From: Isoetes taiwanensis
Taxonomy: Eukaryota; Streptophyta; Lycopodiopsida; Isoetales; Isoetaceae
Assembly: GCA_021234155.1 (NCBI GenBank)
Contig: JAJEKV010000014.1
Location: forward strand, 5,597,563-5,661,562
DNA: 64,000 bases
Direction: 5' to 3'
The stretch's first letter is position 1. Every line of letters begins with the position of its first letter. Shown piece after piece: positions 51,692-53,074 of the stretch. The notes under the pieces were generated by a model that was given only the letters and a program-made list of their open reading frames with translations, was not told the origin of the DNA and ran no database searches. A program made the position numbers and the translations under genes.

Positions 51692-52708
51692 TCATGGCCG
51701 TTCCCCACGGATCCGGCGTGCTAGTTGAAGGTCCTTTGTCATAATGGTCACTCTCTTGGCATGGATTGCACATAAGCTGGCATCGCCGAAGAGGGCCACC
51801 AAATAGGCTTCGGCTGCCTCCTGGAGTGCTAGAATGGCATGAGTTTGAAACCGGAGATCCGTCTTGAAGTCTTGAGCAATCTCTCGGACCAGGCGCTGGA
51901 AAGGAAGTTTCCGTAGCAAAAACTCGGTGGATTTCTGGTACTTCCTTATCTCCCTAAGTGCGACGGTACCAGGCTTATAACGATGCCTCCTCTTAGGCTG
52001 GGGTGGAGCTCTAGGAATAGACTTTCCTGCTGTTCTGGGATGCTGGGCCTTTCGGATGAGATGGTCTCGTCGATTATCCCCTGCAGCCTTAGCAATACTA
52101 CCCCGAGCCTTGAGCTGGTCCTTATACTGAGCACCCGACTTACGGGGCGTCTGCGTCTTTTTTAGCCTTCGGCGAGGAGCAGAAACGTTGGGAGGTGACG
52201 GATCTTGGTGGCGCCGTTCTTCCTCTTCTTTCCTTAACCGCTCCTTAACTGCCTCTGTTACCTCGTTCGCCCTCTGGTCGGCTTCGTCCTGCATTCTTTT
52301 CCTATGTTGCTCCTGTTCTAACTGCTGTGCTTGGAGGGTATCTTCGCGAAGTTTAGCAGCCTCCTCAGTCAATTGCGTTGCCCTCTGTGATTGTGCCTGG
52401 AAGGCGGCCTGCTCCTCTGCTCTCTTCTCCCTGGCTATCCTAATATCTGTTCTTCTTTTAAGCTCTAGGAAGTAGCGTGGAGGGTTGGCCTGCATGTCCC
52501 GCTCGACAGCGCATTGGAATTGATCTGTGAAGAATGGTGGGGTTCCCGCTTCCCAGATAATACGGTTAGTTTCTTCTTCATAAGAAAAAGTGGGGAGGGT
52601 GTATGCCCCCCCATCAAAGAGGCACATCCCGTTTCCCAGGTAACGGTACCTAGAAGCGGGGTCATCAGATGCAAGCCACTGTAGGTCCGCTTCCTGTGCC
52701 ATTTGCAA
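51692..52708 (-). CDS. ORF1 of retrotransposon 2: coiled-coil protein fused to histone H3
   Basis: 338 open codons. Residues 1-80: no known domain (aromatic, [16 protein letters not shown]). Residues about 82-168: strongly charged helix, probable coiled coil. Residues 186-241: degenerate H3 tail; QTPRKS matches H3 positions 5-10 (A7 is P) and GKSIP matches the K27-S28 area. Residues 242-338 (51695-51985): complete histone fold aligned without gaps to H3 39-135, about 88% identical by eye, with [18 protein letters not shown] core and the exact C-terminus RRIRGER plus one residue. Y41, H87 and L90 are the plant H3.3 signature. Changes at usually invariant places: L60F, I62L, G102A, E105G, P121T. 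No intron. An in-frame TAA at 52751 separates it from 107 more codons of the same frame, so the listed start (TTG) is only the frame limit. What it does is unknown. Confidence 0.93.
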
Positions 52709-52750
52709 GCTGTTTTGGGCCTGTGTTTGTAGGAAGGAAGGAAGGTACTT

Positions 52751-53074
52751 TTATCGTTCGGCTTCAGTTTGTTCATCTCCACCTGGCGGGAAGAACCGTG
52801 TACACTTCTGCACACCATCTTCTTGTTCAACTATGGTGCAGGTTTCTTGGATAGCGTTGAGCTTAAATACAAAACGCTCATTATAGCAGAAGAGTGGGTA
52901 TGGTATTCTGACTCCTTCATAGAAACGTTTAGCAAAATATTCCAGTATCTCCTCAGTTTTTGCCTCCGCTTCTGGCGATGGGTTTTGCCGTGGCAACAGT
53001 TCAGCCATTAAAAACTCTATGGGGGTTTGAGAATAACGGGGCTTGCGCTTGTACACCTGCTTGACTTCCTCCAT
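52751..53074 (-). CDS. ORF1 N-terminal part, retrotransposon 2
   Basis: 107 codons from ATG 53074, the first good start after the leader, ending in TAA at 52751-52753. The frame beyond the stop is the same as that of the histone fusion and stays open, so the two were almost certainly one protein of about 460 residues split by a single stop. The sequence (QTPIEFLMAELLPRQNPSPE, then EEILEYFAKRFYEGVRIPYP) is unrecognised. It begins about 500 bp inside the 5' LTR, the usual place of gag. Either the stop is a mutation, a sequence error, or it is read through to give two products. Confidence 0.78.
   Translation of the reverse strand: MEEVKQVYKRKPRYSQTPIEFLMAELLPRQNPSPEAEAKTEEILEYFAKRFYEGVRIPYPLFCYNERFVFKLNAIQETCTIVEQEDGVQKCTRFFPPGGDEQTEAER

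What the first reader, a model, noticed from the sequence alone, without database searches (positions are those of the whole stretch)
51692..53074. A retrotransposon that carries histone H3
Seen: a 338-codon frame inside a target-duplication-bounded Ty3/gypsy element ends in a complete H3 fold (51695-51985), about 88% identical to plant H3.3 with no gaps, fused behind a coiled coil. Known: LTR elements encode Gag, protease, RT, RNase H and integrase; some capture host genes, but I know of no described family with an H3 domain in its own first ORF. Inference: a host H3.3 mRNA was captured and kept as part of a Gag-like protein, perhaps to bind element nucleic acid, enter nucleosomes, or mark new insertions.
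Basis: partly seen in the sequence, partly recalled or inferred. Interest (0 to 1): 0.93.

Follow-up and report, generated by a model that had tools for sequence, protein, structure and literature searches.

The report
Plant retrotransposons carrying histone H3
A very large family of jumping genes in a quillwort genome carries its own copy of the histone H3 core, captured from the plant and kept intact by selection, which suggests these elements make their own chromatin protein.

Summary
The window (assembly statistics match Isoetes taiwanensis) holds a Ty3/gypsy chromovirus on the minus strand whose first ORF ends in a full H3 core. It is no one-off: an element-type H3 pattern has 3,869 sites (reversed control 0), against 15 uninterrupted host H3 and 16 host H4 genes. 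In 26 intact ORF1s the H3 core is very strongly constrained (pN/pS 0.03-0.06, like host H3 paralogues), the linker/tail much less (0.31-0.32). Element H3s share derived residues (Leu124 in 54 of 54) and lie on one side of a supported branch, so one old capture is the simplest reading. The "Gag-like" idea is wrong: in 10 of 10 longer loci a separate Gag relative lies downstream, after an unknown ORF2 and, in 8, a small ORF3; the window copy has lost Gag. Most likely ORF1 is a coiled-coil protein using its H3 core as a real histone, pairing with host H4 and sitting in or on chromatin; whether it blocks silencing, guides integration or packs DNA is untested. My literature searches (open PMC only) listed no precedent.

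The parts
55185..55189 (.). Target site duplication ATTGT, outer side of the 5' LTR
   Evidence: sequence
53576..55184 (-). 5' LTR (element reads on the minus strand)
53559..53574 (-). Primer binding site, TGGTATCAGAGCATGG (initiator tRNA-Met type; the tRNA assignment is recalled)
   Evidence: sequence; TGGTATCAGAGC stands directly behind the LTR match in 5 of 10 longer loci and also occurs in L048
51692..53074 (-). ORF1: N-terminal domain, coiled coil, basic linker, H3 core; one in-frame stop in this copy at codon 108
   Evidence: 26 uninterrupted ORF1s elsewhere in the genome
52205..52483 (-). Long helix, coiled-coil-like (residues 76-168 of the 338-residue frame; block pLDDT 83-96 for residues 91-160, 44-70 at its ends)
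51986..52201 (-). Basic linker with a degenerate H3-tail-like stretch
51695..51985 (-). Histone H3 core
50229..51408 (-). ORF2 remnant (unknown protein), frame-broken, matching residues 11-400 of the 480-residue ORF2 of L046
50210..50229 (-). Junction where the end of ORF2, ORF3 and Gag (found in other copies) are missing
49938..50210 (-). Aspartic protease region
47735..49969 (-). Reverse transcriptase, RNase H and integrase zinc-binding region
46698..47843 (-). Integrase C-terminal part with SH3-like domain and chromodomain
44446..44469 (-). Polypurine tract beside the 3' LTR (AAGGAGGGGAGAA)
   Evidence: sequence
42818..44445 (-). 3' LTR
42813..42817 (.). Target site duplication ATTGT, outer side of the 3' LTR
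   Evidence: sequence

Best explanation
This is one damaged copy of a large, old Ty3/gypsy chromovirus lineage in what is most likely Isoetes taiwanensis. The lineage carries an extra first gene, ORF1, in front of a separate Gag-Pol. SHOWN: ORF1 (404-455 residues in 26 intact copies) is an N-terminal part of unknown family, a helical coiled-coil-like stretch, a basic linker and a histone H3 core; the core derives from H3, most simply by one capture, and has stayed under constraint as strong as that on host H3 genes while linker and tail drifted. INFERRED (about 0.4): the coiled coil makes ORF1 oligomers and the H3 core works as a histone, pairing with host H4 and being placed on DNA, so that element protein is displayed on chromatin where a normal H3 tail would be. 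INFERRED, weaker (about 0.25): this gives the element nucleosomes lacking the usual K4/K9/K27 tail, which hinders H3K9- and H3K27-based silencing of its DNA. The confidence given here is for the shown part.
For: Anatomy in the window and in 10 longer loci. Copy number: 724 and 3,869 pattern sites, controls 0; 9,031 first-look candidates for H3 against 69 for H4. Layout: of 49 listed ORF2-start sites, 33 have an intact H3 motif 248-468 bp upstream, 3 more within 1-5 kb, 0 on the wrong side; of the 13 others 9 still have a variant or decayed H3 upstream. Selection: core pN/pS 0.055 (10 A copies) and 0.029 (15 B copies) against 0.32 and 0.31 for linker/tail; host paralogues pN 0.026, pS 0.605. 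A against B core pS 0.92 with pN 0.087, host against element pS 0.91-1.00, so no recent re-capture or conversion. Elements on one side of a branch, 95/90, 96% of 200 bootstrap trees. Derived residues L124 in 54/54 and A107 in 52/54, host I and T in 15/15; F84, Q85, H113, K122, L126, R129 and I130 (DNA, H3-H3' and chaperone contacts by recall) invariant in 54 element and 15 host sequences.
Against: No expression, protein or chromatin data. The core could be kept for DNA or chaperone binding without nucleosome entry. Residues 86, 89 and 105 are changed in 54, 50 and 53 of 54 element cores, which might impair nucleosome use. 4 of the 13 fetched ORF2 sites showed no H3 in the 1 kb taken. The intact ORF1s and the 54 cores were chosen by score and openness, which favours conserved copies. 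The tree has 95 columns, its bootstrap had not settled, and L048 sits nearest the host H3s. The ten longer loci come from hits with short open frames, and no copy was shown to have every gene intact. The AlphaFold model is weak (mean pLDDT 59.8, H3 region blocks 44-66) and a fold search with it gave no match at E 0.001 or below, no histone among the rows shown.
Confidence: 0.8

Rival explanations
1. ORF1-H3 is a soluble decoy or mimic. It titrates H4, H3 chaperones or H3-modifying enzymes and so weakens host silencing, without entering nucleosomes.
For: Residues recalled as chaperone contacts stay invariant while positions 86 and 89, recalled as next to a chaperone-selectivity region, are changed in 54 and 50 of 54 cores. 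The core is kept and the tail is not.
Against: A mimic of tail-modifying enzyme substrates should keep the tail, and it does not: an ARKS-like motif seen in some A and B copies is absent from L037, L062, L066, L084 and L090. Residues recalled as DNA-facing are also kept.
Confidence: 0.2
2. ORF1-H3 is a tether: the H3 core docks on chromatin and the coiled coil or N-terminal part brings the integration complex there, beside the integrase chromodomain.
For: The same element encodes an integrase chromodomain (Chromo 7e-8); the coiled coil offers oligomerisation.
Against: No link between ORF1 and integrase was shown; insertion-site preference was not tested.
Confidence: 0.2
3. ORF1-H3 packs element RNA or cDNA inside particles, doing part of nucleocapsid work.
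For: Linker net charge +13 to +18 and core +6 to +10 in five examples.
Against: A separate Gag with a CCHC-type knuckle (weak Pfam match, motif clear by eye) exists in other copies; plain packing would not need a core as constrained as host H3.
Confidence: 0.1
4. Passenger: H3 copies inserted by chance, looking conserved only because host H3 is conserved or because of gene conversion with host genes.
For: Only high-scoring or open copies were sampled for selection.
Against: Host-element pS 0.91-1.00 is saturated while pN is 0.10; element subfamilies share derived residues; uninterrupted fusion frames occur in several subfamilies; H3 motif 248-468 bp before the ORF2 motif at 33 of 49 sites.
Confidence: 0.03

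Closest known systems
Ty3/gypsy chromoviruses of plants
   Same: LTRs, PBS, PPT, Gag, PR-RT-RH-IN order and a chromodomain at the integrase end
   Different: An extra 5' ORF1 with an H3 core, plus unknown ORF2 and ORF3, lie before Gag
Phalaenopsis Ty3/gypsy elements with an AlkB-type m6A demethylase ORF (PMC9289625; abstract and passages seen)
   Same: A host-type gene captured as an additional ORF and kept in a lineage
   Different: Different gene; compared there with Tat/Ogre elements; activity tested in vitro. Neither of its two uses of the word histone concerns an element-encoded histone
Plant LTR elements with additional ORFs (review PMC7264820; passages seen)
   Same: aORFs upstream or downstream of gag-pol are described
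   Different: The word histone does not occur in its main text
Tcn1-like chromoviruses of mosses and Selaginella (PMC2864245; passages seen)
   Same: Chromodomain Gypsy elements of non-seed plants; a figure legend lists an additional ORF of unknown function
   Different: Its one use of the word histone is about chromodomains reading marks; by eye, against recalled HP1, our chromodomain lacks two of three aromatic cage residues
Plant histone H3.3
   Same: Core 84.8-85.9% identical to host H3; Y41 or F41, L90, and H87 in subfamily A
   Different: Tail degenerate and fused behind about 300 residues; T86, I89, A102, G105, A107 and L124 in most of 54 element cores

Membership tests
Ty3/gypsy chromovirus | PR-RT-RNase H-integrase in Gypsy order | tested here: met
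   window; RT after PR in 9 of 10 longer loci, integrase reached in L043 and L046
Ty3/gypsy chromovirus | Chromodomain after integrase | tested here: met
   PF00385 7e-8 in window:46698-47843
Ty3/gypsy chromovirus | LTRs, target duplication, primer site, polypurine tract | tested here: met
Ty3/gypsy chromovirus | Gag with capsid and CCHC knuckle | tested here: met
   Not in the window copy (lost); Gag relatives in 10 of 10 longer loci, partial in L042; Pfam capsid on L040; CCHC match below Pfam's cut-off but motif clear by eye
Known plant chromovirus clades (Tekay, CRM, Galadriel, Reina, Tcn1) | RT phylogeny | not tested
   No reference RT set was on hand
Tcn1-like | Group I chromodomain with aromatic cage | tested here: inconclusive
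   Read by eye against recalled HP1: two of three cage residues absent
Histone H3 | Core histone fold sequence with H3 signature | tested here: met
Histone H3 | Free N-terminal tail with K4, K9, K27 | tested here: not met
   Fused behind about 300 residues; tail degenerate in the 10 examples printed
   No credible Pfam or PDB match for the first 200 residues of 15 ORF1s (best E 0.015 and 0.18); Gag found elsewhere in the element
Ogre/Tat elements with an extra 5' ORF | Integrase without chromodomain, dual RNase H | tested here: not met
   Chromodomain present; dual RNase H not tested; the chromodomain criterion is recalled, dual RNase H is

The most novel reading that the evidence does not exclude
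A mobile element has turned a core histone into part of its own machinery: ORF1 is a retrotransposon-encoded H3 variant that is loaded into nucleosomes with host H4, replacing the normal tail by an element protein, so that element DNA or its target sites resist H3K9/K27 silencing.
Probability: 0.27. Interest if true: 0.97.

Novelty: new variant of a known kind. Interest (0 to 1): 0.88.

Why it matters
Elements and host chromatin are usually pictured as opponents, with the host marking H3 to silence elements. A retrotransposon lineage that carries its own H3 core, under constraint like that on host H3, would be a direct entry into that conflict and a natural tail-less H3 fusion for asking what the H3 tail is needed for. 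With several thousand sites in one sequenced plant genome the idea is testable with antibodies, tagged ORF1 and insertion profiling. It also means that homology searches for H3 genes in this genome return mostly element copies: 135 of the 150 rows.

Tried and rejected
ORF1 as Gag: rejected. Nested pseudogene: rejected, H3 is in frame inside uninterrupted ORF1s in several subfamilies and mostly at one distance from ORF2. Repeated host conversion: rejected by saturated pS. An ARKS motif in the linker as a conserved tail mimic: dropped, absent from L037, L062, L066, L084 and L090. Relatives of the ORF1 N-terminal part, ORF2 or ORF3: none credible (ORF1; ORF2; ORF3 Pfam only, best E 0.19). Fold search with the 338-residue frame model: nothing usable. 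Search of IMG/VR with the ORF1 of L031: 1 locus only, an H3-like match to residues 321-411, 38%. LTR dating of L063: the 3' piece fetched held no LTR, so no date. RT-based test for H3-less sister elements: not done. L039's RT matches the window at only 52%; its frames look decayed and this was not resolved.

Full report
HOST. The window lies in an assembly of 1,658,258,908 bases in 1,110 contigs. The published Isoetes taiwanensis assembly is 1658.30 Mb in 204 scaffolds plus 909 contigs (PMC8566536, passages seen). The match of size and number is the only basis for the name; that paper attributes 10.7% of the assembly to Gypsy elements.

THE ELEMENT IN THE WINDOW. LTRs at 42818-44445 and 53576-55184 begin TGTGACG and end CGTCACA; ATTGT flanks both outer ends. 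Next to the 5' LTR is TGGTATCAGAGCATGG (initiator-Met type, recalled); next to the 3' LTR is AAGGAGGGGAGAA. The element reads on the minus strand. Pfam finds protease, RT, RNase H, integrase zinc region and chromodomain. The LTRs are 92.6% identical overall, but unevenly: end blocks differ by 0.7-2.6%, middle blocks by up to 16%.

ORF1 AND H3. The frame 52708-51692 continues to an ATG at 53074 with one stop at codon 108. Its end is an H3 core (Pfam 2.9e-38; H3.3 structure sequence 3.8e-52). A single-sequence AlphaFold model has a long helix at residues 76-168, confident at 91-160, and low-confidence helices at H3 positions; mean pLDDT is 59.8.

ORF1 IS NOT GAG. These ten were picked by hand from hits whose open frame was under 400 residues, so they are not the best copies. 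H3 and, downstream of it, ORF2 and Gag relatives are in 10 of 10 (in L042 only the first 124 residues of Gag before the piece ends); ORF3 relatives in 8 of 10; RT in 9 of 10; integrase in L043 and L046, the others not reaching it. LTR matches upstream were found in 9 of 10 and the exact primer-site motif in 6 of 10. The L040 Gag gives Ty3_capsid 1.7e-16, Retrotrans_gag 4.2e-16 and a CCHC match below Pfam's cut-off. In the window ORF2 stops matching at residue 400 of 480 and protease resumes about 20 bases on; neither Gag's capsid part nor ORF3 gave a match in the window. The window copy is therefore a deletion derivative. No copy was shown with every gene intact.

COPY NUMBER. With the window H3 as query the genome search scored 150 of 8,706 candidates, all matching; 39 of the 150 have an open frame of 400 residues or more, three of these with a stop flagged inside the match (my count from the table). 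With canonical H3, 15 host genes (97-99% identical) come first and 135 other copies follow, of 9,031 candidates, 150 scored. A nine-residue element motif has 724 exact sites, and a twelve-residue motif 3,869 sites with up to 3 mismatches; the reversed controls are 0. The second pattern can admit host genes at one mismatch, so about 15 of the 3,869 may be host; only the first places were listed. Control histone H4: 69 candidates, 43 matches, 16 full-length genes.

IS H3 A FIXED PART? An ORF2-start pattern has 535 sites, control 0. Of the 49 listed on contigs C2 to C623, 33 have a listed H3 motif 248-468 bp upstream on the same strand, 3 within 1-5 kb, 13 none; wrong-side control 0. All 13 were fetched: 9 have a variant or decayed H3 by tblastn (the weakest, L071, at 2e-9), 4 have none in the 1 kb taken. 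So 45 of 49 carry a recognisable H3 if the three distant ones are counted.

SELECTION. 26 uninterrupted ORF1s were aligned (27 found, one duplicate locus dropped). They were chosen for openness and, through the search, for H3 score; one (L050) has an out-of-frame-looking stretch near its start. Nei-Gojobori pN/pS for the core, linker and N-terminal parts is 0.055, 0.32 and 0.22 in subfamily A (10 copies) and 0.029, 0.31 and 0.19 in B (15 copies); L066 was compared apart. A against B core: pS 0.92, pN 0.087. Host against A, B and L066: pS 0.91, 0.97, 1.00; pN 0.10 each. Host against host: 0.605 and 0.026. Constraint on the element core is thus like that on host H3 genes, and synonymous sites are too diverged for recent conversion. 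The first 200 residues are only 29-31% identical between A (L002) and seven B copies and L066, so the H3 core is by far the most conserved piece of ORF1.

ONE CAPTURE. Of 66 element loci with an H3 hit (three duplicates left out), 54 cores without a stop and of 90 residues or more were compared (12 dropped). L124 is in 54/54, A107 in 52/54 and G105 in 46/54; hosts have I, T and E in 15/15. On a 95-column tree of 39 distinct sequences the elements lie on one side of a branch (95/90; 96% of 200 bootstrap trees), though the bootstrap had not settled; L048 is nearest the hosts. With few columns, one capture is the simplest reading, not proof. At least five ORF1 groups exist (A with the window; B; L066; L083/L084/L087; L082/L090), plus L048.

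WHAT IS KEPT AND WHAT IS LOST. 35 of the positions 38-135 are invariant over 54 element and 15 host sequences, among them F84, Q85, H113, K122, L126, R129 and I130; their roles in DNA, H3-H3' and chaperone contacts are recalled. R63 (52/54), R69 (51/54), R116 (52/54) and T118 (52/54) are nearly so. Changed in most copies: 86, 89, 102, 105, 107, 124, 135. The tail is degenerate: L084 keeps STGGK like H3 10-14 but has Pro where K9 would be. What selection keeps is the part that binds H4, DNA and chaperones; what it lets go is the part that modifying enzymes read. This is the main argument for a histone-type function rather than tail mimicry.

RECENT ACTIVITY. Two ORF1s (L062, L063) are 98.9% identical over 1,227 bases, which suggests spread until fairly recently; no LTR date was obtained, and a segmental duplication was not excluded.

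LITERATURE. Searches in the open PMC set listed, in titles and abstract starts, no retrotransposon with a histone domain; three of them returned nothing at all. Passages were seen in PMC8566536, PMC10541799, PMC2864245, PMC9289625, PMC12786077 and PMC7264820; none of those passages mentions an element-encoded histone. No preprints and few subscription papers are held, so absence from print is not shown.

LIMITS. No eukaryote genome other than the host was searched. Selection samples are biased to good copies. No expression data. Function is inference throughout.

Noticed in passing
window 53576-55184 and 42818-44445: The two LTRs of the element are a mosaic: end blocks 0.7-2.6% different, middle blocks up to 16%, suggesting conversion or recombination between copies, or an assembly effect.
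   Followed up: partly
window 51397-51446 (minus strand) and more than 40 related loci: A pyrimidine-rich tract (72-90% C+T over 50 bases) sits directly before the ORF2 start, often with an AG within about 5 bases of the ATG; it could be a splice acceptor or a core-promoter patch.
   Followed up: partly
L046:3982-5424, L046:5627-6115: ORF2 (480 residues, with an acidic stretch) and ORF3 (162 residues) recur between ORF1 and Gag; neither has a Pfam match in L046 and ORF2 has none in PDB.
   Followed up: partly
L090: This ORF1 contains a start MARTKGTK, like the H3 N-terminus MARTKQTA; possibly chance.
   Followed up: no
window 40136-40777: Repeats at a spacing of about 31 bases, 12 overlapping copies of a 118-base reference.
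   Followed up: no
window 56674-57141: Minus-strand ORF that looks like an N-terminal exon of an ABC transporter of the B type (by eye).
   Followed up: no
L092 1054-1338: A viral-collection contig (IMG/VR) encodes a distant H3-like stretch, 38% identical to the ORF1 H3 part.
   Followed up: no
L009-L023: All 15 host H3 genes listed are uninterrupted frames of 136 codons; one (L009) is H3.3-like (T31, H87), the other 14 have A31.
   Followed up: no
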